Shown piece after piece: positions 436-62,000 of a stretch of 64,000 nt of DNA. Under the pieces are notes generated by a model, which did no database searches, was not told the origin of the DNA, and saw nothing but the letters and a program-made list of their open reading frames with translations. Position 1 is the stretch's first letter, and every line of letters starts with the position of its first letter. Both the position numbers and the translations under genes were made by a program. Location of the stretch: assembly GCA_000697665.1 (NCBI GenBank), contig KL197732.1:54189-118188 (forward strand), written 5' to 3'. This DNA is from Jaapia argillacea MUCL 33604. Lineage: Eukaryota > Basidiomycota > Agaricomycetes > Jaapiales > Jaapiaceae.

Positions 436-1848
436 ATGACCCCCAAAATGACCCGCTCTTTCTGCACCATGTTCTGGTCCTCTTGCTTCGCGTTCAGCCT
501 GATAGCGGCTTTCTGGTCTTTGTTTCCTCTACCAAGCTTCCTCGGAAGAGTCTTTGGGCGTGATAGCGTCTCGAGTGCGGCCATACAGGGCGGTTGTGTC
601 ACGGGCACGACGGGCTTGCCCTGTAACTTCGAGGCCAGCGTCGCACGATTTGTGGCTGAGCAAATATCTCACTGCTCCAATATCCTCTCACTCACGCAAG
701 AGTGGGGCGTTCCTACTATAGCTGTCTTCTTCCCACATCAGTGTGTACTCATTGAATCGTCCATTACTTAGGTTTTTCACGTTTTGTTAGAGCTAACTTT
801 CAGGATCTTGTCCGGGATCTCATGCTTTACAACAGTCCAGAGAGTGGCCTTTGCCCAAAAGCAGTACATTCTATGGGATTTGAAGCATTCATGATGACTC
901 AAACCTTGTATGTCCGTCAATTGCACATGGTAGCCGACCTGAGCAAGCCCTCAATAGCACTGGGAGCGGTAAGTGATCCTTCTTTTGAAATCTCCAGTTT
1001 TTTTGCTGGAAACTGATTATTTTACAATCCAGTTAAAATCCGCCGTCTCTCAGCTCAAGACTGTCCAAGAGTTCCGCCAATTGCTCGATCGAGACCCAGA
1101 TCACCGCGTCCCTTATCGTATTCGCTCCAACGCCGTCAAACGAATGAAACAGATCTTGTCCTCAGTGACCCAAGACCTCACTAACGATTTGAGAAATCAA
1201 TTCTTGAATCACATCCACCACCTCGGGACCGTCTTTGAAACCGCAGACTGCATAGCAAATCAAGCAGAGAGCCTTCTCTCTATCATGGATCAGGACATCA
1301 TATCAGTGGACCTGCTCCTCAAAACACGTCCGTGGCAAGATAGGTGGGCCATTTGCTGGCTGTACATCGGCCAAGTTTGTCGGGAGAGAAGACAGAGTAG
1401 GAAATATCAAGAAGCTCTGGTCACCAAAGGCCAACTCCTCAAGTACTATGCGGAGCACCTCTCTACCATAACTGAAAGCATCTTTTCTGCTAAAGCCTAC
1501 ACGGAATGGTATACCCAGTATATGGTCCGTGATGAATTACATTGCTAACGATCACGACGCTGACCGACCATGTGGACCTAGCAGCCTTCTTACGCAGAAA
1601 CACATCATCGAATACCGCGAAGCACGCCACTGGGCAGCGCTGACGAAGAAATCGCCGCTCTTGAGGGAGAATTGGAACTCTACATCTTCCGAGCTCAGGA
1701 GGCCTTCAAGTACGTGGATCTAAGCCCAATGGAGGAGCCGGATGATTGGTACAAGAAGGCACTCCCTCCTGGTCGGCGTCGTCCGTCGTCGACCGGCTTG
1801 CCTTTTACGCCATTCCAGGGAAACTACTCTGACCCTCTTGCTTCGTGA
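436..1848 (+). CDS. Unknown membrane-anchored protein, array copy 1 (412 aa, 4 exons)
   Basis: I do not recognise this family. Exons 436-740, 791-968, 1033-1524 and 1585-1848 join in frame (1239 nt) with GT-AG introns of 50, 64 and 60 nt. The same three introns sit at the same places in the two neighbouring copies, so the model is well supported. The start at 436 opens MTPKMTRSF; a second in-frame ATG is at 448. Residues about 10-35 are strongly hydrophobic (WSSCFAFSLIAAFWSLF), consistent with a signal anchor. A Gly/Cys motif (GGCVTGTTGLPCNF) follows, then a long, probably helical region with a conserved RPWQDRWAICWLY block. The tail is Glu-rich, then Arg/Pro-rich. It may be a single-pass type II membrane protein, but topology and function are inference. 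Confidence 0.82.
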
Positions 1849-2512: not shown

Positions 2513-3910
2513 ATGACTCGCTCTTTCTACGACATTTTCTGGTCCTCTTGCTTGGCGTTCACCCTGTTAGCAGCTTTCTGGGCCCTTTTTCCTCCGCCAA
2601 GCTTCCCTAGAACCATCAGTAACGATGATGTCTCGAGTTCGGGGGTCCAGGGCGGTTGTGTCGCGGGCACAACGGGCTTACCCTGCAACTTCGAGGCTAG
2701 CGTTGCGAGATTTGTGTTCGAGCAAATATCCCACTGCTCCAATATACTCTCCCTCTCGCAGGAGTGGGGTGTTCCTGCTATAGCTGTCTTCTTCCCACAT
2801 CAGTGAGTACTCATTGAACCTTCCAGTGCTCAAATTGTTCATACGCGTGTTAGACCCGGCTTTCAAGATCTTCTCCGGGATCTCATCATTCACAACATTC
2901 CAGAGAGCGGGCTTCGCCCAGAACCAGTAAAATTGATGGGACGTGAAGCATACAATATGATGCGAAGCTTGTATCGCCTACAATCAGAAATGATATCAGA
3001 CCTAAGTGAACCTACGGGAGCGCTGGGTGCGGTGAGTGATCCTTCTTTTGAAATGTCGATTTTTCGCTGGCAGCTGATTATTTTACGATCCAGTTAAAAG
3101 CCGCTGTTTCTCAGCTCAAGACTGTCCAAGAGTTTCGCCAGTTGCTTGATCGGGACGCAGATCATCATGTCCCTTATCGTATCCGGTTCAACGCTATTCA
3201 ACAGATGAAAAAAATCTTGTCCTCATTGGCCCAAGATCTCACTGCGGATCTAAGGGACCGATTCCTGGATCACATCCCCCAACTTGGGACAACCTTCGAA
3301 CCTGCAGATCGCGCAGCAAATCAAGCAGAGAGCCTTGTCTCCATCATGGATCGGGACATTATATTAGTTGACCAGCTCCTCAAAACGCGTCCGTGGCAAG
3401 ATAGGTGGGCCATATGTTGGCTGTACGACGGCCAAGCGTGTCAAGAAGGAAGCCAGATCAGGAAATATCAAGATGCTCTAAACACGAGAGGCCAACTCCT
3501 TAAGTATTATGCGGAGCACCTCCCCAACATTCGTGAAAGTATCTTCTCCGCCAAAACCTATGAAGAGTGGTACACGCGGCATATGGTTCGTGGCTATCTA
3601 CTTTACTCGAGATGAATAGGCTGACTGACCATGTATTACTTGACAGCCTTCTTACGCAGAAAGACATCATCGAATGCCGCGAAGCACGCCATTGGGCAGC
3701 GCTGACGAAGAACTCGCCGCTCTTGAGGGGGAATTAGAGCTCTACATCTTCCGAGCTCAGGAGGCTTTCAAGTACGTGGATCTCAGCCCAATAGACGAGC
3801 CGGATGATTGGTACAAGAAGGCACTTCTTCCTGGTCGGCGCCGTCCACTGTCAACCGGCTTGCCGTTTGAGCCATTCCAGGGAAACCAATCTGACCCTCT
3901 TGCTTCGTGA
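2513..3910 (+). CDS. Unknown membrane-anchored protein, array copy 2 (407 aa, 4 exons)
   Basis: Second array copy. Exons 2513-2802, 2854-3031, 3094-3585 and 3647-3910 give 1224 nt in one frame. Exons 2, 3 and 4 are 178, 492 and 264 nt, identical in length to copies 1 and 3. The start is at 2513 (MTRSFYDIFWSSC) because the more upstream ATG of copies 1 and 3 is missing here. The first intron has a consensus GTGAGT donor, and reading through it would hit a TGA at once, which supports splicing. The N-terminal hydrophobic anchor, the GGCVAGTTGLPCNF motif and the RPWQDRWAICWLY block are retained. Function unknown. Confidence 0.82.
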
Positions 3911-4610: not shown

Positions 4611-6014
4611 ATGACCCCCAACATAAACCGCTTTTTCATTTTCTGGTCCTCTTGCCTAGCACTCTGCCTGATAGCGACTTTCTGGGCGTTGTTTCCTCCA
4701 CCAAGCTTCCTCGGAATAATCAGTAGTGAAAGTGTCTCCAGTTTGGCCACCGAGGGCGGTTGTATCACGGGCACAACGGGCTTGCCCTGTAACTTCGAGG
4801 CCAGCGTCGCACGATTTGTGACTGAGCAAATATCTCACTGCTCCAATATCCTCTCGCTCACGCAAGAGTGGGGCGTTCCTGCTATAGCTGTCTTCTTCCC
4901 ACATCAGTATGTACTACTCGTTGAGTCGTACATTGCTTAGAGTGTTCATCATGTGTTAGACGCAACTTTCAGAAACTGCTCTTGGCTCTCATGGTTGACA
5001 GCATTCCAGATAGTGCGCTTCGCCGAGAACCAGTAGACGCTATGGGACGCGAATCATACAAGATGATGCGAACCCTGTATGGCCGTCAATTAGATGTAAT
5101 AACCGACCTGAGCCAGCCTTCAAGAGCACTGGGTACGGTGAGTGATCCTGCTTTTGAGATCTCCATTTTTTCGCTGACACCTGATTGTTTACAATCCAGT
5201 TAAAAAAAGCTGTATCTCAGCTCAAAACTGTCCAAGAGTTTCGCCAATTGCTCGATCGGGACCCAGATCACCGTGTCCCGTATCGTATTCGCTCCAACGC
5301 CATCAACCGAATGAAACAGATCTTGTCCTCAGTGACTCAAGATCTCACCAGCGATTTGATTGGTCGATTCTTGGATCACGCCCCGCACCTCGGGACAATC
5401 TTTGAACCCGCAGATCGCACAGCAAATCAAGCAGAGAGCCTTCTGTCGATCATGGCTCAGGACGTTATACTAGTTGACCAGCTCCTCGAAACGCGTCCGT
5501 GGCAAGACAGGTGGGCCATCTGTTGGCTGTACGACGGCCATGCGTGTCGAGAAGGAAGACAGCTCAGGAAATATCAAGAAGCTCTGAACACCCAAGGCCA
5601 ACTCCTCAAGTACTACGCACAGCATCTCCCTACCATAAGTGAAAGTATTTTCTCCGCCAAAGCCTACATGGAATGGTACACTCAGTATATGGTCCGTGAC
5701 CAACCACCTGCGAACGATCGTCATGCTGATAGACCATGTGTATCTCATAGCCTTCCCATGCAGAAACGCATCATCGAACGCCGCGAAGCACACCACTGGG
5801 TACCGCTGACGAGGAACTCGCCGCTCTCGAGGGAGAATTGGAACTCTACATCTTCCGAGCTCAGGAGGCTTTCAAGTATGTGGATCTCAGTCCAATAGAC
5901 GAGCCGGATGATTGGTATAAGAAGGCACTTCTTCCTGGTCGGCGCCGTCCATTTTCAACCGGCTTGCCGTTTGAACCATTCCAGGGAAACCACTCTGACC
6001 GTCTTGCTCCATGA
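4611..6014 (+). CDS. Unknown membrane-anchored protein, array copy 3 (409 aa, 4 exons)
   Basis: Third array copy. Exons 4611-4906, 4960-5137, 5200-5691 and 5751-6014 give 1230 nt. Exon lengths 178/492/264 again match the other copies and all splice phases agree. The protein starts MTPNINRFFIFWSSC, keeps the hydrophobic anchor, the GGCITGTTGLPCNF motif, the RPWQDRWAICWLY block and the Glu-rich C-terminal segment (EELAALEGELELYIF). No stop or frameshift interrupts any copy although the introns have diverged, which argues that the family is under selection. No catalytic motif is recognisable. Confidence 0.82.
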
Positions 6015-20281: not shown

Positions 20282-21344
20282 ATGAGGGGTTCGGGCCTTT
20301 CATCCCAAATCGCCCTTGAGGAGTGCTCCTGGTAAGATCGTCAGTTGTGGACACTCATGTACCCCTTGAACACTCGTGTGCTTCCTGACACAGTATTCGT
20401 ATCTTGGTCATCGGAATGGTGACGGTTGTTTCATCCTTCTTCATGCGGTGTCTGATGCTTGAGCTCACAGACCGGAGTCGGGAAGTCGACCCTGATCAAT
20501 TGCGCCTTCAAAGCCAATATCGCAGTAAGATCTCCTGGTTCTTTCCATTGGTCCTACCAACCTAATGTGGTTCATTCACCATCAGAACGTATCTGATCGT
20601 CGAGCTAGTGTATCGAACATCGAAAATGAACTTATTCCTCCGGAAAACCCTCGGTTCATTCTCCACGATTCCCAAGGTCTCGAGACCGGTGAGGTTGACA
20701 ACTTGAACAAGATAAAGGATTTCGTCAAGCGTAGGATGGCCGAGCCTAAGGTTCAGGATAGGCTCCATGCCATCTGGTGAGTCCCTCTCCGGCATCCCAC
20801 GCCTTTCTTGATAGCTGTCTCGCAGGCTCTGCGTTGAGGTTCCCCGGGCGGGCGGGCGGTTATTCGAGGCTGGAACTGAGGAATCGCTCCGGCTCGGGGG
20901 GGATGAGTGTGAGTCACCATATCTGTTTGCTGCAGTGCCGTCGCTGATATATGCGTGCATCTCAGTGCCCGTTATTGTGGTGTTCACTAAGTGTGACCTG
21001 CTGCTCCTTCTGAAGCGTAACGAATTGAGGGGTAAACTTCCTGAGGTAGAGAGAACCCTTGCTGCAAAGAGACAGGCCGACGTATTTTTTGAAGAGCGTT
21101 GTAAAACACCTTTGATCCGGCTGGTACGAAACCCATCCTACGTGAGAGTTTCTTGTGCGTTTTGGTAGTCACGTCCACCTACTTCATCCCATTCGGCTGA
21201 TTTTTCTCTCGCATCTTAGATGACGATTATTCCTCGTTATCGCGGCTACTCGAAGTCACATCCAGCCTTGTGGTAAGTCGGCTTTGTTGAAGGGGACGTG
21301 TAGATTGTTTCATCCGATTGTTTCAGCCACTGCCCGACAAGTGA
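20282..21344 (+). pseudogene. Truncated GTPase-domain paralogue (about 220 aa remaining)
   Basis: Exons 20282-20331, 20394-20418, 20471-20524, 20586-20776, 20826-20908, 20966-21154, 21220-21272 and 21327-21344 reproduce, exon for exon, the GTPase part of the gene at 26497-29764; exons 2-5 have identical lengths. P-loop GMTGVGKST, switch motif DSQG and NKxD-type TKCD are kept. Beyond exon 7 the sequence decays. The spliced frame stops at PLPDK, and the homologous next segment (ATARQVSSSEAGA) has lost one base relative to the intact gene. No kinase domain follows. It is either a broken duplicate or a short GTPase-only protein. The promoter-proximal region (about 20010-20280) also resembles the region upstream of 29764, so the duplication included the control region. 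Confidence 0.65.
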
Positions 21345-26496: not shown

Positions 26497-29400
26497 TCAT
26501 CCCAACATTTGAACAATGACATCCATTGTCGGACGTGAGGATGGATCCGTCTCCACGCACTCCTCTACTAGCTCCCATAGATGGTCATCCAAGCCTGCAA
26601 CCACAAGAGCAGGGTCACTTGGTCGTGGGGGCTTTTCTTCACGTTGGATTTTGGCCATCATGAGTTGGAACTCACTCATTGTTGGGAATGGCAATTCACC
26701 TGTGAAAATCTGAAGCAGGGTTCAGTATGCATTATCCTAAAGGGTGAGAGCCGAGAAGCTTTACCTGGATGATGAGGCATCCAAATGCATAAACATCACT
26801 TTGGGTCGTAGGTCGAGTTTCGGATTTGAAGAGTTCAGGAGCGGCGAATTGGATCAGGCCGAGAGGTGGGATTCCGGATGAGGTCATCGAGAGGGACGAT
26901 AACCTTTCGAGATGTCGAGTCAAACCAAAATCGTTCAAGAGGGCATTGCCCTCTGCTGAGACCAGGACATTATCCTAGCAAGTGGTCAACGAGGGTAGGG
27001 TTCAGAATCTCTCGAAGGACTCACCCCTTTCAGATCCCCATGAACATATGGGTGACCAGCCTGTCCGGGATGAAGGTAATCTAAAGCTTGTGCAGTCTGC
27101 GATAGCTGTGAAAAAAGTAAATTAAAGTTTGGGCAAGCGTATGGTAAGCAAATGTACCAGTTTGACACGGTCAGCATTTGGGTTACATTTGAGATAACGC
27201 AAACAATCGCCGTTGTGGACCCAAGGAGAAATCATGTAGAAACATGACCCGTCAAGAAATGTAAAGCCCAAGAACCGTAGGATATTTGGGTGGTTCATTT
27301 GGGACCATATCTTGACTTCGCGGCGGAAGAGCTTGGTAACGGTATGAATTAGATCCAACAATATTAACATGACGAGAGAGGAGATACCTTGAGGACATTA
27401 GTCTTGCACTCGAGGTAAACTCGGAGTTTCTTCATTGCAACATCCACCTGTTGTCCTTGATGGTCCCAAATGCCACGGTAAACGTCTGAGAATCCACCTC
27501 CTCGAAGTGGGCCTTCTGTGATAACAACACTATTACCAAGGTCGAGGGAACCGCCATCATCACCTTTACCACTATCAATTGTCAAGACCTCACCAACAGA
27601 TCGGGAATCCTTGTTTTAAGTGTGAGCACCCATGTAAATGAAAGAATGGAATGGCTTACTAGAGCTGTCGTTCTTGTGAGCCCCGTCTCCGCCGCTGACG
27701 AAGAAACAGTCTTCGCAGGACGAGCAGTTTGCTGCAGCCTTTGCGCCGTTGGTTCACTTCCGCCAATCCTGGATGAATCCCAACTTGTTGTCAATAGTTC
27801 CGAGGGAAGCGTCATCCCAAGGAGTCGGACTAGACGAATTGTCTCCTTTTCCGCATCCCCTGAGTTGATAAGTTGGACGAGATCGGGTCGTGCAGTATAC
27901 TGACAGATGTCCTGATGGACAGCAGACAGGGACAGAGGCCTCCCGTATAACTCAACAGCAAGCTTAACATACTCCCATATGAGTTTCGAACGTTTGCTCA
28001 ACATAATGTGGAGCAGATATTGAAGGATGGCGGTGAGGTCGACAATATACCCCATCAAGCATCTCAGCGTTTCGGGACTGGGACACTTTCAGCACCGTAA
28101 GCATGAGCTGACCAGCATGACTTACGTCATTTCAGAGGTGTCGTTTAGCAACTTGATTAAGGTCGACGATAAACCTGCGATGTCTTCCATAGGTCCACCG
28201 GCAGTAGATATCGCCTGGAAGATGGCGGTAATCTTGGCCGTTGGCAAGTCGCTACGTGTTGACGAGTGAGTGTTGTCCATCGGGGGATGATACAAGCTGG
28301 CAACTTACGATGATGGGGTGGTGTCATTATTGGATGCCAGCCCCTCAATGAGGGTCAAGACCATTTCTTTGAATTCGCGGCTTGAAAGAAGCTATGTATA
28401 AACTTTATTATTGGATGCGACAGAGCGAGGGAAGACACAAACATTATCTGGATCGTTGAAGTTCCATACGGATACCATGTCGGTGTGGACTACATCGAGG
28501 GAGGCCTTGAAGCCTCTTCGACCAGATATCACATTCGCCCAGAGCCCTTGCCAATATCCTGTCGGAGGTAGTGTCGGTGGGTAAGCAGAAGGAAACGGCG
28601 ATGATCTTACGTTTCATCCCGACCCTGTGAAGAGCGGAGTCAGTCAGAAATAAACATACAAAGGATTGGGGTTAAACACGTACGCAACTGATGCCTCGAG
28701 CTTCAGGGGAACACTGACTCGTTGTACGATAGCCCAAAGGATCCAGACATCGCCTTCGACGTGGCGTATGACAACGTCGTAGGTGACATTAACTAACCAG
28801 AGCAACGAGGGAGCATCATTTTCTGAAATACGAGAACACCATAAGTCGAATCGGCGGAAACCAGTGGGCTGGGCTGCCAAAAACTCACGAGAGACTTTCA
28901 CGCAGCTCGTGTTGGGAGCAACACGAGCCAAGGGCTCTTTACAATGCTCTTCCAAAAAACGTTCAGCCGCTTTCTCAGCCAGAGAGGTTCTCTCTTCCTT
29001 GGGAAGTTGCCTCAGCTTGTTGCGCTCCCGAAGGAGGAGCATATCAAACTTCGTGAAAACAACAACAATTGGTACTGCAGCAAACTCAGATGTTAGCAGC
29101 GACACCAGTGTAACACGGAGTGTTTACAACTCACATGTATCCTGCCCGAGCCGTAGCAACTCCTCAGTGCCGGTCTCGAATAACCGCCCACCTGAACGGG
29201 GAACCTCGATACAGAGCCTGCAACAGAGTCATCAAGAAAGCTTTTGGACACCGGGGATGACTCACCAGATGGCATGGAGTCTATCCTTGATCTTCGGCTC
29301 AGCCATCCTGCGCTTGACAAAATCCTTTATCTTATTCAAGTTGTCGACCTCTCCGGGCTCGAGACCTTGAGAATCGTGGAGGACGAACAAAGGATTATCC

Positions 29401-29764
29401 TGAAATGTGATTTCGTCGTCGATGTTTGATCTACCAGCTCCGTGATTCGATACTTTCTGATTGTAGTTCGCGTGAGATTCGTGCAATTGATGTAAGGAAC
29501 CTGGATATCTTACTGCGAGATCGACATTGAAGGTGCGATTGATCAGGGTTGACTTCCCGACTCCGGTCTGTTGAGTTATGAGTCTCCACAGGAGCAAGTA
29601 CGAAAGAGCCCCTCACCGTTCCGATCACCAAGATGCGAAAGCTGTGATAGTAGTCATGGAATGTTCAGGAGGTACACAAGTGTCCGAGATTGAATAACTT
29701 ACCGGGAATACTCCTCGATGACTCGGATCTCAGTGGTTTTAGACGGAAGATCTGAACTGTTCAT
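26497..29764 (-). CDS. GTPase-helical linker-TKL kinase fusion protein (746 aa, 17 exons)
   Basis: Exons (minus): 29764-29703, 29641-29617, 29567-29514, 29456-29266, 29217-29135, 29074-28889, 28822-28684, 28624-28611, 28558-28443, 28391-28309, 28251-28126, 28062-27660, 27609-27388, 27331-27158, 27105-27025, 26974-26765, 26709-26497. They total 2241 nt with every phase consistent. Residues 28-35 (GTTGVGKS), 75-78 (DSQG) and 146-149 (TKFD) form a GTP-binding domain. A helical middle region (about 170-440) contains VWILWAIVQRVSVPLKLEAS and MGYIVDLTAILQYLLHIML. The C-terminal kinase has a Gly loop at 483-492, Lys507, Glu526, HGD at 601-603, DFG at 621-623 and APE at 651-653, so it looks active. 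The HRD arginine is replaced by Gly, common in fungal TKL kinases. A signalling role is likely; any role in cell death or self-recognition is inference. Confidence 0.85.
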
Positions 29765-36644: not shown

Positions 36645-39600
36645 TCAAAATACAAACTGGTGCAGGTGGTGATCACCGTACTTATTGACATAGAATGCAC
36701 GAAACGCATCCAACGTATAAGAGAAATGAAAGTCGTCTGGGATGAAGGACGAACCATACGAACCGATAAGGTGAGCTCCGCGGGCAATACATTCGACGTG
36801 GATGACTGCCATGCTACGACGGCCATTCCCTTCGTACTCCGGTTTCACAACCCACATCCCAGTTACCTCATCTGGCTCATCATCCTCCCGTACCAACCAC
36901 TCTACGAGGGCACAGGGATAGCTTTTGCCGCTGTACGAGAAAGAGAAGAAAAGCTTCACCCTTCCGACAACCATCCCTCGCATCCCACTTTGATCCGGGT
37001 CAATCTCAACGAAGACTGTGTCGTATCGAGCGTACTCTCCGCGCCAATTGGGGTTTGAGCGGATGCGTTCTCGGTACATACCCCCGGCACCGCAAATGTC
37101 ACTCGGGGCGAAGAATCGAGCCACGGCAGAGTGATACACGTAGACACGGCCGGAGAACTCGGGGCATTGATCAATAGGTACGGCGGAGGACGGGATCGGG
37201 GATGTTGGATACAGTTGGTCAAAGAGGAAGCGGCGAACCAGCGGGAGGAGTCGCGGTTGGTTGATATGTGTTGCAAGTTCCGGAAGCTTCTTTGGATAGT
37301 TACGTTCTAGGCGTGGTTGTCAGCGACATCGATTGAAAATGAACAGAAACATACCATATGTTTGGGCTAACTTGACGAAATTCATCACCTTTGGTCCGTC
37401 GACGGGCCCGCTATCATCATCTTCGTCATCAACGGGGTCGGTCTCAACTGGTTCAGGCTCATCTCCGGCAAGCATGCGAGCCGTATACGATGATGTAGAT
37501 CCTTCCATCATCCCCTTCCGTTCAAATGCTTGTTGGGCAGCCGCCATCTTATCCAGCCGCTGATTTGTGCGCAACATCTGTCGTAAAGCCTTGTAACGAC
37601 TTGATCGACGCCAAGGTTCCCCCACGGCTCCGATATGCTTGGATTCGGTGATTGACGAACAAAGGCCGTTTGGAGAGCCGAAGAGGCGTATACCGCGGAT
37701 GTAGTGCATTAGGGAGTGCTGGCGAGGAAGAGAAATGTCGGTGTCACGGACGCCGGTCTCAACGAAGATTTGTCGGTGGTGGTGGAAACGTGTGAGGGTG
37801 CTCTTGAGCTCGTCCATAGCGTCGGTGTCAATCGAGTTTCTGCGCGCAATGTAACAGAAATCCAGGAAAGCGGCGAGACACTTGACCATGGAATCGGGGA
37901 CGTGACCAGTGATTGCAGGCAGATAGACCTCGATGAACACATCAGGCGGGGTGAAACGTGATTGAATATATTGGAATCTACCTTCATCAAAGCTTTTGAA
38001 TCGTCGCCGGTCCACTGGGTGAAGTCCCGTCCTTCTGGAAAACGACGGAGTCCGGGGAAAGCGGGAACAGCTGCGATGCTAAGCCAAGGCTGAGAAAATA
38101 GTTGAAAGGTGCCAACTTCAGACTCACCGTCGGTCAATGTCTTCGATGATCGCGAAGGCACGAGCTTCACCATGCTCTAAGATCAGGTACTCATTTACCC
38201 ATGCAACGATATGGTCCTTGAATGTTCCTTTGATGAGCTGATGGAGGAGGTCGGGCGTGATCAATTGGTGGATGTCGGCACGAGGAAACGTATGCGTGAA
38301 AGGCTGGAAAGTAATCAGACAGTGAAGACAACGTAAGATGTGAAATCGTACCGTAACGTCTGACCGAATTCCGTAGTCATCCCATAATATGCCAGGATCA
38401 AACACGCTGATATAATATTCAGTCTTGTGCTTGGTGCAACGGCGAGCACCCGGGTTATCGAGATCCTCAGGTCGGGCATCACATCTACCGTGAATTCATG
38501 AGGGTCAAAATCTGGTATAAGTGCCAGATCAGTGGAGTAGTCGCTCACTTGGGACACCAGCCTTGTACGACACCGGAAAGCCATACCTGCTCTGGATAGT
38601 CAGCAATATATGGACCCAAACCATAGATGGCATGTCGGAAATGACCATCGGCACATTGAACAACTTCTGGTGTGGTCATTCCCGCCTTCAATGGCTCAAA
38701 AACATGTGCCAGACATGCATGATACATCTGGCGGCAGAATTTTTGATATGCTGGCTTGCGACGATGCTTCTTTGAAGCTACAAGTAGCCAAGTTTATCTT
38801 GTGAGTAAAGCAAACGAAAAGTATAGCAGAAAGTCATACTTTTTGGGATTGGCAAAAATGCGACAGGAAGAATGCTGTTGCTATGACCACGTCGAGCAGT
38901 GTTGGTTAGGACTCCAGGAGACATATAGACCGGGTGGTATTCCTGATGTCCTGTTGCGACTGAGCAGGTAGTCTTGTCACTACCAGCCACAATCGGGACA
39001 TACATTGCGCCGTGCGTCGTGGGATCTTGGGCGATGATATCCTGTCAACAAAGATAGAAATTTGTTAGCCCGTACTTCAATACCGATCTTTACATGACGT
39101 ACCGCCTGATTCCAGGCAAAATCAGCAGACATGAGATTTGAGTAGACTTGCTTCCCGGCTTTGTTAAACTGACGATAAGGTCTCGTGTTTTGCTGACCCT
39201 TGAAGGCAGATGTTGCTAGTTGATTTTGGAGAACAAGGCGAGTGTTGCGGGTACATAGCTCGTATGTCTGAGTCATCCATTTCGGGGGTGTTCCAGCTGG
39301 CAAGGGTCCTTGATAGCGAACGGTATGGACTTTCCATGGTGCACTACCGTGCTGAATTTCATCAATGTTCGCATACAAATGAGAAGCATTTTTCCAGGGG
39401 ACAATACCGTGGTACTTCAGTACCGTCGCTGCCCAGATGTCAAGCGCTGTGTTGATCTCTGCCGCTGAGCTTTGCGCCGTAACAAAATGATAGTTTGCAA
39501 AGTCAAACTCGATTCTATCTTCGAACGGATGCCACGACTTTTCTGCGTTCTCTGCCGGTGCAACAAAAGGTGGTGGTGGGGTGTCCGGTGGGATGAAGTC

Positions 39601-39845
39601 ACCGTTACGGTTGCAACGCAATCCTTCTCAGAAGATTAGTTGGGGGAAACCTAAGGAATTTGAATGGACGTACCAGTTAATTTTGGGTGATATTGATATG
39701 TAAAGTGTTCTTCTGGTTCAACGTCGTTGTCAATCCCAGGGGCAGATTCACAATGGACGGCGTTGATATGTTGAGTCCGGCCACCACTGGATTTGCATAT
39801 AAGAGGACATTTCGGGCAGGGGTAGGACTGAGGCGGGGCCGGCAT
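36645..39845 (-). CDS. Plavaka-type transposase (922 aa, 9 exons)
   Basis: Exons (minus): 39845-39674, 39626-39103, 39041-38840, 38777-38549, 38484-38352, 38303-38128, 38078-37982, 37928-37355, 37306-36645. They sum to 2769 nt in frame and end in TGA. The N-terminus has a C2H2 finger (C10, C13, H26, H31) after MPAPPQSYPCPKCP, the usual opening of this family. Recognisable blocks are TSKKHRRKPAYQKFCRQMYH, KCDARPEDLDNPGARRC, LLHQLIKGTFKDHIVAWV, SITESKHI and the C-terminal YHSAVARFFAPSDICGAGGM and FVNKYGDHH-like blocks. I recognise these from basidiomycete Plavaka (KDZ-related) transposases. It should cut and paste its own element in the nucleus. No stop or shift was found, so it may still be functional. 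Terminal inverted repeats could not be fixed. Confidence 0.85.
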
Positions 39846-45335: not shown

Positions 45336-48300
45336 ATGTGAGTTTCCATGGCTTTTCCTTGATTTCTTCATCTTAATAGGATATGGAGGTCAAATCCACC
45401 TTCTGACTCCCCACCCAACACCCCAAGTCGTGCCCGTGATGCTGCTCGACAGGCTGAACGTGATCAATGTGAGATGCTGAGCCCAGAGCAGTGCAGAGTA
45501 CCCAGTCAAAATCGTGATGGTCCAATTCCTTTCAATTTACCCCCAGCTCCTGCACCACCTGCTGCAAGAGGTGGAGATGTGTTTGGTGGAGCACCTAGGG
45601 TTGCTGGCTGACATGTATTTCCACAGGTATGTTTATATATGTATTTACAGAATTGATGAATGACCAAACCACACCAGTATGACTTTTTTCATTTACCTCC
45701 TAATATACGTCAACAGATGGATAATTTGCTTCCACTTCAACCTGTTTGGGGAAGGTGAGGCCATGCTGTGTGTACTATATTTTTTTCATGCTGTACATGC
45801 CCATTTTTCTTATGCAGTTTCTAATAGACTGTGCCTCCAGCAATAGTAGCCCAGCCAATGCCTCCATCACTAACTCCAACAGGCCAAGTAAGGAACTTGG
45901 GAGCCCAGCTGGCCAGCTTGCCTCCCTTAGTGCCATTACAAAGGCAGTGGAGTAGTCGAAATCAACCTCCACCAATGCCTGCTTTGATAGCTCCAAATCC
46001 TCCCCAACTTAGGATGGGACATGGAGTTTTTCAGCATCCTCATCAGCAGAATCAGGATTTAGATATGCACAGCCCTCCCAGATCACCTCCAAGAGGATTT
46101 GTTGGTCGCCAAGCTCAATCACCACCAGCATCACCAACACATCGAAGGAATATGCCACCTCCCTCTATTCATAGGATTCATGCAGCTCCTGATGATCCTT
46201 CTGATTCTTCTTCTTCCTCTGACTCTTCATATATTCCCAGTCCTCATTCTTCTGATGGCTCTTCCTCTTCCTCTGATATTGAGATGAATTCCTCTGATCC
46301 AGAGGCACCATATAACCCTCCCTCTCCAGGCCGACCTGCTGGAGTAGCTTCTCTTGCTACACGTCAGCCAAATACATGGACCAATGTTATCCCTCATTAT
46401 CTGGGAGCTATGGATGTAACATGTAAACGTTGTGGTGCTTTGCACTGGATTGAGGAATGAGTGAAAAAATATGGTATCATAAACCCCAGATTTGGGATGT
46501 GTTGCAATCATGGAAAATGGGTGGTTTCACAGCTCACCCCCTTACCTCCTGAGTTGCTAAAGCTTTACTCTGTAAATACTGCCAATCCTGTTGATCGTGC
46601 CCATGCGAAAGAATTCCAGAACAACATCTGTATGTATAATTCTGCATTGGCAATGACTTCACTTGGTGTCAACATAGATTGTAGTTTGAATCAAGAAGGT
46701 GGCCCATATGTATTTAAGATTCAGGGTGCATTATACCACAGGATGGGGAGTCTGCTTCCCAGCAATGATAATCAACAGAAGCGATATGCAGAACTGTACT
46801 TTTCAGACTCTCATAATGCCCTGGATCAAAGAATGAATAACAATCAGGGGGCCAATAGAGTAGTCATGCAGACTCTTCAGGACATGTTGTATCACACCAA
46901 TCCATTTGTGAATCAGTTCAAGGCAGCTTTTGAGAGAGTATGTGAGACACCCAATGTCCAAAATTTGACAGTTAGGCTTTTGGTAGATCCAAAGTCAGAT
47001 CAGTGTAGATATAATGCCCCCACAGCAGATGAAGTTGTAGCTATTGTTCCAGGAGAAAGTGCTGAAACAACAGGTACCAGGGATGTTATTTGTCAGTTGC
47101 GTGGAGGGGCTTTTCAAAGAATATCTGAGGGACATCCCTCCTATCAGCCATTGCACTATGTTTTACTATTTCCCAGGGGAGAACAAGGCTAGCATTTTAG
47201 AATGCCTTTCAACTCAGTTGAGAATCCCCCTGTCAACAATGCTAATGCTGATAATGAATATGATGATCCATTTGATGAAAATCCTAATGATAAAAGGCAA
47301 AAAACACTCAGCCAGCGTGAATACTATGCCTATCGCCTTCATCCACGCCAGCGTCAAAGTGTTCCTGGGGCAGTAAATTTAGTTCTTTTACCTGTTGATG
47401 CAGAACCACCAAACATTTTCTTTGGAGGAAAGCTTTTTCAGCAATATATGGTGGATGCATGGGCAGTGACAGATCAAGCTAAGCTGCGGTGGTTTAGAAA
47501 CAATCAAACAAAGATTATGGCTGATGTGTATCAAGGATTGGTGGATGCTGTAGCACGAGATGCAAACTTGAATGATATTGGAAAAAGGACAATTCTGCCC
47601 TCATCATACATTGCAGGAACACGATGCATGAGAGGTTGGTACCAAGACTCTATGGCAATAGTTAGGACAGTGAGCAATGCAGACTTCTTTTTGACAATGA
47701 CAACCAATACAAACTGGAAAGAGATTCAGGATGAACTTTTACCTGGCCAGACAGCATCTGACAGACCTGATATTGTGGCCAGAGTGTTCAAGCTCAAAGC
47801 TAAGGCTCTATTGGAGGATATCCGAACAAATGGTATCTTGGGTAAAGTAGTAGCTCACATTCACACAATTGAGTTTCAAAAGCAGGGTCTTCCACACATG
47901 CATCTAATCATATTCCTCCATTGTGATCACAAACCTCGCACACCTGCAGAGGTTGATTGTATTATTTCAGCCCAGCTTCCTGATGAAGCAACTGAGAAGA
48001 TACTTTATGACAAAGTGGTAAGATATATGATGCATGGACTTTGTGGAGCTGAAAATCCTAAGGCACCATGTATGGAGAATGGAAAGTGTACCAAAAAGTT
48101 TCCAAAAGCATTTCAAGAAGAAACTACAATGACTGACAATGCCTATGCAACTTTTGCCCGTCCAAATAATGGGAGAACCTATACAACAAAAGTGGGAGGA
48201 AGAGAGGTGAAGCTGGACAACCGGTCTGTAGTGCCCTACTGCCCCTATCTGGCAATAAAGTATGACTGTCATATCAATCTTGAGTGTGTTTTCTCCCTGA

Positions 48301-50765
48301 GATCAGTCAAGTATCTTCACAAGTACGTTTACAAAGGTCATGATCACACTTCAATGGGATTTGGGACAGCTCAAGATGAAATTCAGCTTTTTCTTGATGC
48401 CCGATATGTTTCTGCATGTGAGGCAGCCTGGTGTCTTTTTGGGTTCCGCATGCACCATGAGTTTCCTACAGTAGTTTGGTTATCAGTTCACTTGGAAAAT
48501 GAGCAGTGGGTAACTTTCTCTGAACAAGATGAGCCTGAAGAGGGAGCAGAAGATGATCCTGAAGCTCAAGCTGAAGCCCAGGCTGCACGAACTGCACTTC
48601 AGAATAGAGTGTTAGCAGAAGCAGGAAAAGACACAACTCTTATGGCTTACTTTAAAGCCAATGAAAAGTATCATGAAGCAAGAACTTTGCTTTACCAAGA
48701 TATGCCCCGACTATTTGCCTGGAATCCAAAACCAAGGACTTGGACCCTTAGAGCTGATCCTGGCGCCACAGGAGCACTTGGGCGTATGTACTTTGTCCAT
48801 CCTGCATCTGGAGAAACATATTTTTTAAGGCTGCTGCTAACAGTCATTAGAGGAGCACGAAGCTTTCAAGACCTGCGTACTTTCCATGGCACAGTGTATG
48901 CCACATATAAAGAGGCATGTTTTGCCAGAGGACTTTTGGAGGATGATAATGAATGGAAGCAATGCTTGACTGAAGCTGCTGGAATGGCTACAGGCCGTCA
49001 GTTGCATGCATTATTTGTTAGTATCTTGAAAGAGTGCAACCCTCTGGATCCCAACAGTCTATGGGAGGAGTTCCAACATCATATCTGTGATGACTTAGCT
49101 GTTCAGTTGGAGAAATTGAATATTCATAACCCTTCTGAGGAACAAATATATGATTATGGCCTGTTTTTGATTGAAAAATTGCTCTGAGAACAAGGAAGAT
49201 CTCTGCAGGCATTTAACATGCCAATGGCTCAAATGCACTGGGCAGACATTCAAGGCAATCCTCTCATTGCTGAGCAGCGAGACTACCAGTGGGATTTGGA
49301 AGGTGCCAGTGCTGCTGAGATGTATGAAAAGCTTAACATTGAGCAGGTTTCTGCTGTAGAAAGGATTTGAATCTCTGTTGAACAGACACTTGGAAAGATT
49401 TTCTTTCTTCATGGTCCTGCTGGGACAGGAAAGACGTTTCTCTATATATATTTATGTCACCTATTTAGAAGCCAAGAAAAAATTGTTCTTTGTGTGGCTT
49501 CTTCTGGAATTGCTGCTTTGCTTCTTCCAGGTGGACGTACAGTCCATTCTCGATTCAAGGTTCCAATTGCAATTGATGAATCATCAACTTGCGCAATTGG
49601 TAAAGACTCAATGGAGGCTGAACTTATTTGGGCTGCTGATTTGATCATCTGGGATGAAGCACCAATGCAGCACCATCATATTGCTGAGGCTGTGGATAGA
49701 ACCTTTCAAGACATATGTGGGAGTGATAAAAAGTTTGGTGGGAAAACAATTGTATTTGGTGGAGACTTTAAGCAGATCTTACCTGTCGTTATCCGTGGGT
49801 CAAGAGCCTAAATTACTGGAGCTTGCCTCAGATCTTCACCTCTTTGGAATCATATAGAAGTTTTACACCTAAGACAAAATATGCAACTTGGTCAGAATGA
49901 GGATGAGCGTGAATTTGCAAAGTGGCTTCAAGAAATGGGAAAAGGGATGCACACTGATCCTGTTGATAATACCATTACTCTTCCTCCTCATATGAGATGT
50001 GGAGAAAATAAGCTTCAGGCATTGATTGATGAGATCTATGGAGAGGTAGATCCTCAAAACCCTGCTCCAAATGATGAATACTTCTCCAGTCGAACAATAC
50101 TCTCTTCTTGAAATGATGATGTAGATGAGATTAATGCTGAGATGCTAAAAAGGTTCCCTGGAAATGAAGTTGTTTTCAACAGTGCAGACTCTACTTATGC
50201 AGAGGGGCAAAATCTACAGGGTCAAGCAGGAGCAGGAAACAATCAACAAGGAAATGATGGCCTCTATCCAGTAGAGTATTTGAATGCTATGAATCCTTCT
50301 GGGTTTCCATTGGCCAGATTACGTCTAAAGGTTGGATGTCCAATCATGATTCTGCGCAATCTGGACCCCCAAAATGGTGTATGTAATGGCACACGTGCCA
50401 TTCTTACCCGTTGCACAAATCGTGTTTTAGAAGCAAGAATTTTGGGTGGAGACCATGCAGGAAAAACCATCTTCATTCAAAGGCTTACGCTCACAACAAC
50501 GGAAAATGAATGAGAAATTCCATTTGAGTTTTGCTGGAGACAGTTTCCAATCCGCCTTGCATTTGCCATGACAATCAATAAGGCTCAGGGACAATCAGTC
50601 AAGAATGTGGGCTTAGATCTTAGAACCCCTGTTTTCACTCATGGACAGCTCTATGTGGCCCTGTCACATGTTACATCAGTTCATCGGATCAAGGTTCTTT
50701 TTCCAGAGGGGTCTACAACAACAAAAACAGTGGATATAGTATATCCTGAGGTTCTTCTGGAGTAA
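45336..50765 (+). pseudogene. Helitron Rep/helicase, inactivated by in-frame stops
   Basis: A single frame runs from about 45831 to 50765. Earlier short exons (about 45386-45630 and 45678-45756, possible split start codon at 45336) supply the N-terminus. Rep landmarks are the HUH motif (PHMH, 47895-47903) within HTIEFQKQGLPHMHLIIFL and the catalytic-tyrosine region KYVYKG (near 48321). Helicase landmarks are Walker A GPAGTGKT (49413-49436), Walker B IIWDEAP (near 49650), GGDFKQILPVV and TINKAQGQS (near 50570). Stops interrupt at 46458 (TGA), 47190 (TAG), 49185, about 49368 (TGA), 49809 (TAA), 50109 and 50511 (TGA), plus one near 45609. There are no frameshifts. The stops fit CGA to TGA, CAA to TAA or TGG to TAG. 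The copy is dead but its protein family is unambiguous. Confidence 0.9.
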
Positions 50766-52446: not shown

Positions 52447-55400
52447 TTATACTCCTAGGATTGGGTTTTTGTGGTAAAATTCTGGGGATGTAGGAAAGCG
52501 TTGCCTTGCAGTGCGGTTTGCTTCCATGTCAATCCACATGCGAGTCCATTGTTCTTCCGGTACTTTCAATGCAGCAAGTAGAATGGAGGCTGGATGAGGC
52601 GATGTGGGGTTCTTCTTGTGGAATTCTTCAATGTACTCTGAGGTGCGGCGTAGATTTCCAATTGGTTCCCAAGTATTGTCGGATTCTGGATATCCTTTCC
52701 ATTTGACCAAATATTTGACGTTCTTTTTGGTTTTCTGATTCATGTATTTCGAGTTAACGATTTCTTTGACTTCAAATTCTTCTTCTCCTTCGATTGGATC
52801 TGGGAGCGGCTTGGTGAAGTTGGGTCCATGCACATTAGTTTTGATATATGGAGTGAGAAGTCCTGCATGGAATACTGGGTGGATTCTCCATTTCTTTGGT
52901 AGTTTCCATTGATATGTTCCAGGGGCTATGACATTTTCGATTTCGAAAGGTCCATGGCATTTGGGCGAGAGTTTGGCAGAAGGGTATTCGGTTTGAACAT
53001 TTGTTCCTTCCAGCCTAACATAATCCCCTTTCAAGAATTGGGGTCCTTTTTCTCCATACTTGTCGTGCTGTTTCTTCATAGCTTCAGCGGCTATGACGAA
53101 GCATGCTTCGGCCTCTTTCCTTGCTTCTCGGAGTTGTTCTAATCACAAGTCTGCTTGGGGAACGTCTGGTGCCGGTTTCAGAGATGGGGCGATGTTCGGT
53201 GCAAAACCATGCATTAATTCAAATGGGGTTTTCTTGGTGACTGAATGCACCTGTGTGTTATGAGCGAGTTCTGCAATTGGTAGAAGCAATGGCCAGTTGT
53301 TCTGGTTCCAATTACAGAAGGTTCAAAGATAAACTTCTGTTTCTTGATTGACCTTTTCTGTGGCTCCATTGGTCTGTGGATGGAAGGCTGTACTGAGTGC
53401 TGATTGTACTCCAAATCGATCAAGAAGAGTTTTGAGTACTGCCAATGTGAATTGGGGCCCTCTATTGGATATTAATTTGTCTGGAAATCCATAACGCCGG
53501 AAGGCGTTGTTATAGAGAATTTCTGCAGTGCCTTCGGAATCTACCGTTTTGTGGCAGGGTGTGATGGTCGTGGTTTTGGTGGAGGTATCCATGGCTATGT
53601 GGATAGCATCATATCCATCGGCTTCTGGTAATCCAGTGAGGAAATCATTTGTGACAGTTCCGAAAGGTTGTTCTGGAACTTCGGTCGGATGGAGTGGTTC
53701 ATTGGTTGGATGCATTTTGGGTTTCATCGATTGGCAAATAGTGCATCCTTCGACATATTCTTTGATGAAGATCGACATTCCAGGCCACCAATAGTCTCTT
53801 TGCACAATCTCCAGGGTTTTATATCGTCCTAGATGTCCTCTGATTGGTGGGTTGTGACATGATCGAATGATTTTTCTTCGTAGGTCATGATTTTTTGGAA
53901 CATAGATCTTTCCTCAGTAGAGGATTAATCCATCTTCCAAATTCCATTCCTCTAATCCTTTACTTAAGGATCGAGGTCCCTGTTTTTTGATGACTTGGAT
54001 CGCTGTTGACACTTTGTCATCCAGTTCCATACTTTTCTGCATTTCTACTTTTAACTCCTGATCTCCAGTGAGCGTTATATGAGTCATTGCTTGTCGAATG
54101 TTGATCCAAATTTGTCAAGTAACAGATGGGTTTTCGGTTGTGGCATTTCCTCGTCCCACAGGAGAGGTGCAAAACAAGGATTTTGCATTGAGTGATTTTG
54201 AGAAAAGTTGGGGTCCTAAAAGTATGTGATTTTTGTTGTTGGTTTCTACCCCCTCCTTATGGTCAATACGTCTCGAGAGACCATCTGACTTGTTCGTTTT
54301 CCCAGGCTTGTGGATCAACATGAAATTGAATCGTGTCAAAAACTGGGCCCATCTAGCCTGTCGTTCGCTGAGTTTCTGAGCAGTAGTGAAGTACTCCAGG
54401 TTTCGATGGTCTGTATAGACCTCGATGATATGCTTGCATCCTTCCAGGTAGTGACGCCATGCATCCATGGCACAAATAATTGTGAGAAGTTCCTTGTCGT
54501 AGATGTCATAGTTTCGTTCTGCGTCGGATAGCAATTTTGATAAGTAGGCCACAGGATGGTATTTCTTATCCGATTCCAGCTGTGTTAGAACGGCTCCTGT
54601 AGTGTAGTCCAATGCATTGCATTCAATACGGAATGGTTTGTCAGGGTTGGGCATGACCAGGGTGGGGGAAGAGGTGAATGATGTTTTTAGTTGTTGGAAT
54701 GCATCTTCGCATTTGTTTGTCCATTCCCAAGAGTGATCTTTCTTTGTGAGTTCGAACAATGGTTGTGCAATTTTTGAGAAATCTTTGATGAATCGATGAT
54801 AAAAATTGCAGAATCCAATGAAGGATTGAACCTCTTTGACTGCCTTTGGTGTGGGCCAGTCAAGGATTCCCAAGACCTTGACTGGATCCATCTCCACAAG
54901 GTTGTGAGAGACAATCACCCCAAGGTACTTGACTTTTGATGTTTCAAAGGTGCATTTTTCCAGTTTGAGGAAAAGGTTGTTCTCTTCTAGAATGCGAAGG
55001 ACTTCGTGCATTATTTTCCTATGCTCTTCTAATGTGTCTGTGAAAATAAGGATGTTGTCCAGGTAGACAATGACGACCTGTCGATCAATAAGGTCCTTGA
55101 ATAGTTCGTTCATCATAGTTTGAAAGGTAGCTGGTGAATTGGTGAGACCGAAGAACATGACCATTGGTTCGAATAGCCCACGATTCGTTTTAAATGCTGC
55201 TTTCCATTGATCCCCGTCCTTGATTCAAACATTGTTGTATCCCCAGCGCAGATCCAGTTTTGAATAAACTTTAGCATTTTTGAGTTTATTGATTAACTCG
55301 GATATAAGGGGAATAGGATAATCATTTTTGATGGTTTGTGAGTTAAGATAACAATAATCTTGTGTTGGATGAAGTTTCCCATCTTTCTTGTCGACAAAGA

Positions 55401-59061: not shown

Positions 59062-62000
59062 GTGAAGGCACGGACTAAGGTTCTTTCATCAAACAATAGA
59101 TATGCTATATTACAAATGGACATTCCCGACTCAATTTGTGTATCCACTCTGAAGAAAAATGGAATTCCTTCCTTACAATTCGAAGTGGAACTTATTGGAA
59201 AAAACCGAAGCGCTGTAACAAAAACTCTACTCGATAGTGGAGCCACTGGAAACTTAATCAATACTCAATTTGCTAAAAAACATCACATGAACATCCAGAA
59301 ATTGGAATGACCTATTCCAGTTTACAACATTGACGATATGGAAAATCATGATGGAAAATTTGAGTATTTTGTGGAACTTGACATGAGGATCAAAGGATCC
59401 AAAAATACCTGCCACATGGAAACAAATCGATTCTACATCACCGATCTAGGACAAGAAAACATCGTCCTAGGAACTGATTGGTTACACGAGCATAATCTGG
59501 AGGTCGAGTGGCAAAACTTCAATTTGAAGTTTACATGTTGCCCTAATATCTGCCGCATACAAGGCTTATGCACTGTTCACGCAAAGCCATCCAATTGACC
59601 TGCCACCACCCTCCGCAAAACCAAACCTGTACATGTGTTATACACAGCAAAACAGGGGACATCTTACGTCATTGCAGACCAGGAGTATACTCCAAAAGTG
59701 GTCCATGATACATCTTACGTATCACAATAAACCATGAAGAAAAAGGGACGAGCATCACGAAAAGCATCCAAGACAATCATCCCATCTTCATGGTCAACAG
59801 AACAATTGGAACCACTAAATCCAATTGACCAGACATTCAATGAATGGCAACACAAAGGAATTCAAACATATCGAATCATCACAAGCCATTCAGACCCAAT
59901 GGAACCAGTTATTCCCAACTGTACTCCTCTATCAGAACGACACAAAACTCCAGTTCCTGCTAGACACATTGCAGGGATACAAATTTGAGCACACAGAAAC
60001 AAATCAATTGAATTAGCATTAAAAGATGCCCAAAAAAGAGGAGAGAAAACATTTGAAGAAATGGTTCCACCAGAATATCGGAGGTACCAGAAGGTCTTTG
60101 AGAAAAAGGCTTCAGAATGATTTCCAAAGGAAAGAATTTGGGATCATGGGATAGAACTCAAGGAGGATTGGAAACCTCACAACTGCAAAACTTATTTGCT
60201 ATCCCCACAGAACAAAAAGAACTTGATGCATTCCTAGAAGAACAACTACGAAAAGGATACATTTGCCCATCAAAATCCCCACTCTCCTCACCATTTTTCT
60301 TTGTCGACAAGAAAGATGGAAAACTTTGTCCTACCCAGGATTATCGTTATCTGAACTCGCAAACCATCAAAAACGATTATCCTATCCCTCTTATATCTGA
60401 ATTAATCACCAAACTCAAAAACGCTAAAGTCTATTCGAAATTGGATTTATGATGGGGATACAACAACGTTTGGATCAAAGAGGGGGATCAATGGAAAGCA
60501 GCATTTAAAACGAATCACAGACTATTCGAGCCTATGGTCATGTTCTTTGGTCTCACCAATTTGCCAGCTACTTTCCAAACTATGATGAATGAACTGTTCA
60601 AAGACCTTATCGACCGAGGAGTTGTCATCATCTATCTGGACGACATCCTCATTTTCACTGACACGCTGGAGGAACATAGGAAAATAATGCATGAAGTCCT
60701 CCACATTTTGGAGGAAAACGATCTTTTCCTCAAACCAGAGAAATGCACTTTTGAAACATCAAAAGTTGAATACCTTGGGGTAATCGTCTCTCACAACCTT
60801 GTGGAGATGGACCCTGTCAAGGTCTCCGGAATGCTTGACTGGCTGACACCAAAAACGGTCAAGGAAGTTCAATCCTTCGTTGGATTCTGTAACTTTTATT
60901 GCCGATTTATCAAAGATTTTTCAAAAATCGCATGACCGTTATTTGAACTCACAAAAAAGGATCACTCTTGGGGATGGATGGACAAATGCAATGCTGCATT
61001 CCACCAATTAAAAACTTCATTTACCTCCTCTCCAACCTTGGTCATGCCTGATCCCGACAAACTGTTTCGTATTGAATGCGACGCATCCGACTATGCTACA
61101 GGAGCTGTTCTAAAACAACTCAAATCTGACAACAAATACCATCCAGTGGCTTACTTATCAAAATCACTATCTGATGCTGAACGAAACTACAATATTTATG
61201 ATAAGGAACTCCTCGCTATTATACAAGCCATGGATGCATGGCATCACTACCTAGAAGGATGCAAGCACATCATTGAGGTCTACACAGACCATCAGAATCT
61301 GGAATATTTTACAACCGCCCAAAAGCTCAGCAGATGACAGGCTAGATGGGCCCAGTTTTTGACACAATTCAATTTCGTGTTGATCCACAAGCCTGGGAAA
61401 ACAAACAAGTCAGATGGTCTCTCGAGAGGTATTGACCACAAGGAGGGGGTAGAAACCAACAACAAAAATCACATACTTTTCGGACCCCAACTTTTCTCAA
61501 AATCACTCGATGCAAAATCCTTGTTTTGCACCTCTCCTGTGGGACAAGGAAACGCCACAACCAAAAACCCATCTGTTACTTGACAAATTTGGATCAACAT
61601 TCGACAAGCAATGACTCATATAATGCTCACTGCCGCCGAAGCTATGAAAAAACAACATGACAAGTATGGAGAAAAGGGACCCCAATTCTCGAAAGGAGAC
61701 TATGTTTGGCTAGAAGGAACAAATGTTTGAACTGAATACCCTTCTGCCAAACTCTCACCCAAACACCATGGACCCTTTGAAATCGAAACCGTCATAGCCC
61801 CCAGAACGTATCAATTGAAACTACTGAAGAAATGGAGAATCCACCCAGTGTTTCATGCAGGACTTCTCACTCCATACATCGAAACTGATGCACATGGACC
61901 TAACTTCACCAAGCCACTCCCAGATCTAATTGAAGGAGAAGAAGAATTCGAAGTTGAAGAAATCGTCAACTCAAAATACACAAATCAAAAGACCAAAAAG

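What the first reader, a model, noticed from the sequence alone, without database searches (positions are those of the whole stretch)
26497..29764. Single-gene fusion of a GTPase, a helical linker and a TKL kinase
Seventeen exons join with perfect phase into 746 codons. They link a GTP-binding domain (GTTGVGKS, DSQG, TKFD) to a kinase with an apparently complete catalytic set. The layout recalls Roc-COR-kinase proteins, but the GTPase and the middle region do not look like Roc-COR. The middle helical region could be an adaptor or death-fold-like bundle. I do not know of a characterised protein of this design.
Basis: partly seen in the sequence, partly recalled or inferred. Interest (0 to 1): 0.75.

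Follow-up and report, generated by a model that had tools for sequence, protein, structure and literature searches.

The report
Mushroom GTPase fused to protein kinase
In the wood fungus Jaapia argillacea one gene welds a molecular on/off switch (a GTPase shaped like animal immunity GTPases) to a signalling kinase, and a separate mushroom lineage seems to have made the same weld on its own, which suggests that the two parts work together.

Summary
Seventeen exons on the minus strand (29764-26497) join in frame into 798 codons (not 746): a GTPase, its helical domain, a Ser/Thr/Leu/Gly-rich linker and a TKL-type kinase. The genome is Jaapia argillacea. A second copy on another contig has the same order, no stop and 16 introns. 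The gene is a visible chimera: introns 1-11 are those of GTPase-only genes, introns 12-16 those of a kinase gene, and the seam lies inside exon 12. The public model of this gene lacks the P-loop and exons 7-8; what it leaves out is under purifying selection.

Most likely the GTPase module clusters or switches the kinase: a Roco-like design in a kingdom reported to lack Roco genes. Coupling is inferred, not shown.

The parts
26497..29764 (-). whole fusion gene, 17 exons, 798 codons plus stop
   Evidence: gene model; spliced alignment; paralogue
28764..29641 (-). G domain (about residues 21-220; exon 2 to part of exon 7): P-loop, DSQG, TKFD, last helix
   Evidence: domain ends transferred by eye from the P0003 model
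27822..28763 (-). helical domain of the GTPase module (about residues 221-445; part of exon 7 to 5' part of exon 12), immunity-related-GTPase-like fold
   Evidence: on homolog P0003
28611..28822 (-). exons 7 and 8 (139 and 14 nt; residues 201-251), left out by public models P0001 and P0002 but conserved: dN/dS 0.21 against the C60 copy, 0.03 against C24_424k
27660..28077 (-). chimeric exon 12: its first 254-257 nt match exon 12 of GTPase-only genes (E 1.6e-55 and 5.4e-49); nt 318-383 match the exon before the kinase in gene C60_112k (E 1.8e-4; for the C60 copy nt 300-427, E 1.3e-12)
   Evidence: blastn
27529..27821 (-). Ser/Thr/Leu/Gly-rich linker, about residues 446-526 (exons 12 and 13), weakly constrained (dN/dS 0.85)
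26500..27528 (-). TKL-type kinase domain, about residues 527-798 (exons 13-17)
26497..26499 (-). stop codon
20282..21281 (+). broken copy of the GTPase-only gene: exons 1-6 and part of 7 readable at the same intron positions, then stops

Best explanation
One chimeric gene encodes a GTPase (G domain plus its own helical domain, an immunity-related-GTPase-like fold) joined by a probably flexible linker to a TKL-type protein kinase. SHOWN by sequence: the fusion, its two parent gene families in the same genome, its duplication, selection on both halves, and the same design in Amanita, where it does not share one clade with the Jaapia fusions in either half. INFERRED: the GTPase module is a nucleotide-dependent switch or oligomerisation device that changes the position or local concentration of the C-terminal kinase, which is the output. 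In design it works like a Roco protein, and like other fungal proteins in which kinases of this class sit beside NACHT-type, WD40 or ankyrin modules, but it is built from unrelated parts.
For: 798-codon open frame. Paralogue with 0 stops, 0 frameshifts and 16 introns. Introns 1-11 shared by GTPase-only genes C24_417k and C24_424k (11 of 11 each; C24_428k and C24_494k share 10 of 11), introns 12-16 shared by kinase gene C60_112k (5 of 5; C60_118k 4 of 5), seam within exon 12. dN/dS window against C60 copy: G domain 0.15, kinase 0.26, helical 0.44, linker 0.85. GTP and kinase motifs intact in both copies. Recurrence: in the GTPase tree the Jaapia fusions lie in a Jaapia-only clade of 6 and the Amanita fusions in an Amanita-only clade of 9; in the kinase tree in a Jaapia-only clade of 7 (0.95) and an Amanita-only clade of 19 rows (0.73) of which 10 are unfused. 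One clade of Jaapia plus Amanita fusions is rejected: p-AU 3.7e-72 for the GTPase half (71 of 126 rows) and 1.9e-35 for the kinase half (91 of 262 rows). Helical domain immunity-related-GTPase-like. Amanita full-length model P0029 is confident as a whole (pLDDT 85.3, pTM 0.84). Pfam columns show related kinases with NACHT-type, WD40, ankyrin, SH3, C2 and RasGEF domains (domain names of the accessions mostly recalled).
Confidence: 0.5

Rival explanations
1. The coupling runs the other way: the kinase phosphorylates the GTPase half, for example its switch region, and turns the GTPase off, as the parasite kinase ROP18 does to mouse immunity-related GTPases in trans.
For: Immunity-related-GTPase-like fold; ROP18 phosphorylates two switch-I threonines of Irga6, a loop implicated in its GTP-dependent dimer (PMC3006384, passages).
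Against: No phosphosite evidence. Related kinases are attached to many unrelated modules (Pfam columns), which fits an output better than a dedicated regulator of one GTPase.
Confidence: 0.25
2. A shuffled chimera without functional coupling: domain shuffling in expanding, transposon-rich gene families made it, and the halves keep working separately.
For: Plavaka, Helitron and retroelement genes lie about 9-28 kb away; both parent families are multi-copy; the linker is weakly constrained (dN/dS 0.85).
Against: Both halves are conserved in both copies, and the same order exists in Amanita outside the Jaapia clade.
Confidence: 0.17
3. The main product is a shorter, P-loop-less kinase such as the public 598-aa model, from an internal start or from skipping of exons 7-8.
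For: Public models P0001 and P0002 both leave out the 51 codons of exons 7-8 in frame, and P0001 starts at residue 150.
Against: The left-out segments are conserved: dN/dS against the C60 copy 0.12 (95% 0.06-0.23) for exons 1-5 and 0.21 (0.08-0.51) for exons 7-8. Exon 8 is a 14-nt microexon, which gene callers easily miss (inference). P0003, a GTPase-only model, includes the segment.
Confidence: 0.06
4. Two adjacent genes wrongly joined.
For: None found beyond the lack of RNA data.
Against: Fused paralogue elsewhere with the same introns; the seam is inside one exon; between residues 385 and 558 the two copies share no Met position (448 in the window copy; 436, which is window position 440, in the C60 copy); public model P0001 also joins the helical region to the kinase.
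Confidence: 0.02

Closest known systems
Roco proteins (Roc-COR-kinase, such as LRRK2)
   Same: GTPase, then a helical or scaffolding region, then a TKL-type kinase in one chain; plausibly a nucleotide-dependent assembly device driving a kinase
   Different: Roc below cut-off and no COR; GTPase fold nearest to immunity-related GTPases; [quoted passage not shown]
Immunity-related GTPases (Irga6/IIGP1, Irgb6, Irgb10; GM4951 counted with them from memory)
   Different: 10-16% identity in those rows; Pfam IIGP found in 5 of 54 members, best E 0.015; as I recall them they carry no kinase
Agaricomycete stand-alone 'G domain-containing' proteins (P0003, P0004 and many others)
   Same: Same G plus helical module, 32-76% identity in the aligned part; parent family
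   Different: No kinase
Amanita G-helical-kinase proteins (P0027, P0029, P0245, P0253 and less complete models)
   Same: Same order and same two domain families
   Different: Outside the Jaapia clades in both halves; helical instead of Ser/Thr/Leu/Gly-rich linker
Rhizopogon kinase-GTPase proteins (P0005, P0032)
   Same: Same two domain families in one predicted protein
   Different: Reversed order, kinase first; kinase in another clade; gene models not checked here

Membership tests
Roco (Roc-COR) | Roc GTPase domain above the Pfam cut-off | tested here: not met
   E 0.037, 14.7 bits against a cut-off of 27; in the family 37 of 54 members hit Roc at E up to 1, best 0.0011
Roco (Roc-COR) | COR domain after Roc | tested here: not met
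   No COR family among the 16 Pfam families at E up to 1
Immunity-related GTPases | G domain plus helical domain of the IRG fold | tested here: met
   the rows that align over both domains (17 of 50, 277-297 residues) are IRG chains and fill ranks 1-8; 16 of the best 20 rows (12 GM4951, 4 Irga6/Irgb10), the other 4 septins. Caveats: EngB ties on Z (15.6), the helical part was not searched alone, and the model is of homolog P0003
Immunity-related GTPases | Sequence membership (Pfam IIGP) | tested here: not met
   5 of 54 members at E up to 1, best E 0.015; no IIGP row for the window protein; none among the 60 of 239 PDB rows shown
Immunity-related GTPases | Inducible, membrane-targeted defence function | not testable with these tools
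   Needs expression and localisation data
TKL-type protein kinase | PK_Tyr_Ser-Thr domain with Lys, helix-C Glu, catalytic Asp, DFG and APE | tested here: met
   E 4.1e-40; motifs; the HRD Arg is Gly
TKL-type protein kinase | Grouping with reference TKL kinases in a kinome tree | not tested
   No reference kinome was used; TKL is inferred from the Pfam match and fungal relatives
TKL-type protein kinase | Ser/Thr rather than Tyr specificity | not tested
   HGDLKGDN resembles the Ser/Thr pattern (rule recalled); no assay
Agaricomycete G-domain protein family | Conserved G plus helical module | tested here: met
   303 proteins at E up to 1e-10 among 7995 scored candidates, 120 listed, most of these covering about 46-61% of the query, that is the G plus helical part; invariant residues

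The most novel reading that the evidence does not exclude
Mushroom-forming fungi, reported to lack Roco genes, have at least twice rebuilt a Roco-like GTPase-kinase from an immunity-related-GTPase-like module and a TKL kinase; the chimera is a fungal non-self or stress sensor in which a dynamin-like GTPase assembles on a target and clusters the kinase, and the many stand-alone GTPases and kinases of these genomes act as its unlinked partners.
Probability: 0.25. Interest if true: 0.85.

Novelty: new variant of a known kind. Interest (0 to 1): 0.6.

Why it matters
Repeated fusion of the same two families is a classic sign that two proteins act in one pathway. It gives a direct hypothesis for two large, little-studied families of mushroom-forming fungi: the G-domain proteins feed TKL kinases. 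If coupling is shown, it would be an independent comparison for how GTPase modules control kinases, the open question around LRRK2, and it would extend the immunity-related-GTPase-like fold to fungal signalling.

Tried and rejected
Death-fold or adaptor reading of the middle region: rejected, it is the GTPase's own helical domain. MLKL N-terminal similarity: 4 of 54 members, best E 0.062, too weak to use. Sequence proof of kinship with immunity-related GTPases: the profile search of PDB sequences showed 60 of 239 rows (septin, EngB, EngA/Der, Rab, ABC-transporter and a few other chains) and no IRG chain, so only the fold supports it. Mycena floridula P0209 (kinase plus another GTPase by its Pfam column): not matched by my GTPase queries, left out. 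Fold searches of the full Amanita model showed 50 kinase rows each, so they do not test the GTPase half or a LRRK2-like arrangement. I first read the helical dN/dS of 0.44 as unusual for the fused copies; GTPase-only pairs give 0.22 and 0.45, so it is not.

Literature on this design, judged from titles and starts of abstracts: searches (0 papers; 87 papers, 20 listed; 0; 5; 1; 3; 13; 4; 7) was for the organism and (15, 8 listed) for ROP18. Papers were seen as found passages only, never whole: PMC3937382, PMC12881547, PMC9815663, PMC2838846, PMC3006384, PMC4104024.

Rows dropped: trees used domains covering at least 75% of a kinase query or 60% of a GTPase query (so P0005, P0032, P0176 and P0252 are missing from the GTPase tree, P0244 and P0272 from the kinase tree, and the broken window copy from the GTPase tree); P0274 (22.7-bit GTPase match) was not counted as a fusion; one search used 71 of 126 rows and one search used 91 of 262; the AU test held 11 rows (2 Jaapia, 9 Amanita rows from 8 proteins) and left the 2 Rhizopogon rows out of the held group. 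Of the eight Amanita fusions in the GTPase tree, P0250 and P0254 are models without the P-loop part, and P0244 and P0272 have cut kinase domains; P0027, P0029, P0245 and P0253 are complete in both halves. The trees are FastTree or quick IQ-TREE without bootstraps; one search warns that the Amanita clade joins a long branch, P0047. The fusion group was named for the tests after one search was seen.

Full report
WHAT IS THERE. Reading the minus strand from ATG 29764, 17 exons separated by 16 GT-AG introns of 48-66 nt join in one frame into 798 codons and a stop ending at 26497. Pfam finds an MMR_HSR1 GTPase at residues 23-147 and a PK_Tyr_Ser-Thr kinase at 534-797. The named motifs are there; in the catalytic set the departure I saw is HGD in place of HRD.

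IS IT ONE GENE. The database search names the genome: record P0001 of Jaapia argillacea MUCL 33604 is identical to the window protein apart from lacking residues 1-149 and 201-251. The contig of P0002 has the length of C60 here (139476) and that of P0130 the length of C26 (523788), while P0001's contig is 546150 long against 520012 for C24, so the assemblies may differ in part. P0002 has GTPase and kinase in one public model. A spliced aligner written here re-found the 16 introns of the window gene, then read the P0002 locus as 794 codons with 16 introns, no stop and no frameshift, including 51 codons (exons 7-8) that its public model skips too. Fifteen introns sit at the identical residue and phase, the other one residue away beside an alignment gap. 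Between the two copies dN/dS is 0.12 for exons 1-5, 0.19 for exon 6, 0.21 for exons 7-8, 0.50 for exons 9-11 and for the 5' part of exon 12, 0.74 (95% 0.40-1.50) for its 3' part, and 0.29 for exons 13-17. The segments left out by the public model are therefore under selection as protein. Two adjacent genes are nearly excluded.

HOW IT AROSE. The genome holds GTPase-only relatives on the same contig and kinase relatives without this GTPase on contig C60. Two GTPase-only genes (C24_417k, C24_424k) share introns 1-11 exactly, two more share 10 of these 11, and the kinase gene C60_112k shares introns 12-16 exactly. Exon 12 is the seam: its first 254-257 nt match exon 12 of the GTPase-only genes, while its 3' part (nt 300-427 in the C60 copy, E 1.3e-12; nt 318-383 in the window copy, E 1.8e-4) matches the exon before the C60_112k kinase, which itself follows another kinase-like stretch. 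The two fused copies pair with each other in the GTPase tree (0.95) and more weakly in the kinase tree (0.64), so one fusion followed by duplication is the simplest history.

ELSEWHERE. Of 317 protein rows gathered from my three homology searches and this genome, 15 have matches to both a GTPase and a kinase query: the two Jaapia genes, two Rhizopogon proteins with the kinase first, and eleven from Amanita (A. rubescens, A. brunnescens, A. phalloides), of which one (P0274) has only a 22.7-bit GTPase match and is not counted. Four Amanita proteins are complete in both halves. In the GTPase tree the Jaapia fusions lie inside a clade of six Jaapia genes, four of them unfused (support 1.0), and the Amanita ones in an Amanita-only clade of nine (1.0; the ninth, P0278, is a model cut in the kinase). 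In the kinase tree the Jaapia fusions lie inside a clade of seven Jaapia kinases (0.95) and the nine Amanita rows inside an Amanita-only clade of 19, ten of them unfused (0.73). Holding Jaapia and Amanita fusions together is rejected for the GTPase (p-AU 3.7e-72) and for the kinase (1.9e-35). One ancient fusion with many later losses is not formally excluded, but separate fusions are simpler, and the Jaapia seam is visible. The linkers differ: rich in Ser, Thr, Leu and Gly in Jaapia, helical in the Amanita model, which is confident over most of its 835 residues (pLDDT 85.3, pTM 0.84). These lists are lower bounds: one search scored 7995 candidates and showed 120 of 303, one search showed 120 of 254, one search gave 84.

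MECHANISM. Shown: two enzymatic halves with intact motifs, both under purifying selection, in one chain, in two copies, and the same design in another lineage. Inferred: the GTPase module is the sensor or switch and the kinase the output. Reasons: related kinases are attached to NACHT-type, WD40, ankyrin and other modules in other fungi (Pfam columns; names of accessions mostly recalled), as expected of an output; Irga6, a GTPase of the likened fold, is activated through a GTP-dependent dimer (PMC3006384, passages); and a probably flexible linker suits proximity rather than rigid allostery. HGD marks a non-RD kinase, a kind that as I recall often does not need activation-loop phosphorylation, so clustering or release from inhibition may be enough. 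The reverse, the kinase switching off the GTPase as ROP18 does to Irga6 in trans, remains a serious rival.

AGAINST THE KNOWN. [quoted passage not shown] It works like one only in design. A 2010 survey noted an exceptional number of TKL kinases in Laccaria bicolor (PMC2838846, passages), and a 2014 study a fungal kinase lineage, FslK, in which 16 of 241 members carried an extra domain (PMC3937382, passages); the passages I saw mention no GTPase fusion, and I did not test whether this kinase belongs to FslK. I rate it a new variant of a known kind.

Noticed in passing
window 20282-21281 (+): Broken copy of the GTPase-only gene, exons 1-6 at the same intron positions as the fusion gene, then stops in exon 7; it lies about 5 kb from the fusion gene on the other strand.
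   Followed up: partly
window 973-1545, 3052-3612, 5185-5895 (+): Three neighbouring open frames of near-identical wording (TIQLK.AVSQLKTVQEFRQLLDRD), apparently a tandem family; the one scanned (5185-5895) has no Pfam match at E up to 0.01.
   Followed up: no
window 47193-49184 (+): Helitron helicase-like N-terminal domain, E 8.9e-53; Helitrons are known to carry and join gene pieces (recalled).
   Followed up: no
window 53326-55224 (-) and 61731-62282 (+): Retroelement frames: reverse transcriptase, RNase H and integrase zinc-binding in the first stretch (gypsy-type is recalled); the second shares wording (TEYPSAKLSP) with the frame at 52450-53142 and was not scanned.
   Followed up: no
window 38983-39627 (-): Plavaka transposase match, E 9.2e-25.
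   Followed up: no
L047 (contig C60:110400-120399), gene C60_112k: A kinase that is the close relative of the fused kinase and seems to follow another kinase domain, about 25-36% identical to other fungal kinases: perhaps a tandem-kinase gene.
   Followed up: partly
public records P0184 and P0228: Fungal kinases whose Pfam column lists PF22215 beside the kinase families; one search names PF22215 as MLKL_N, so this may be an MLKL-like layout.
   Followed up: no
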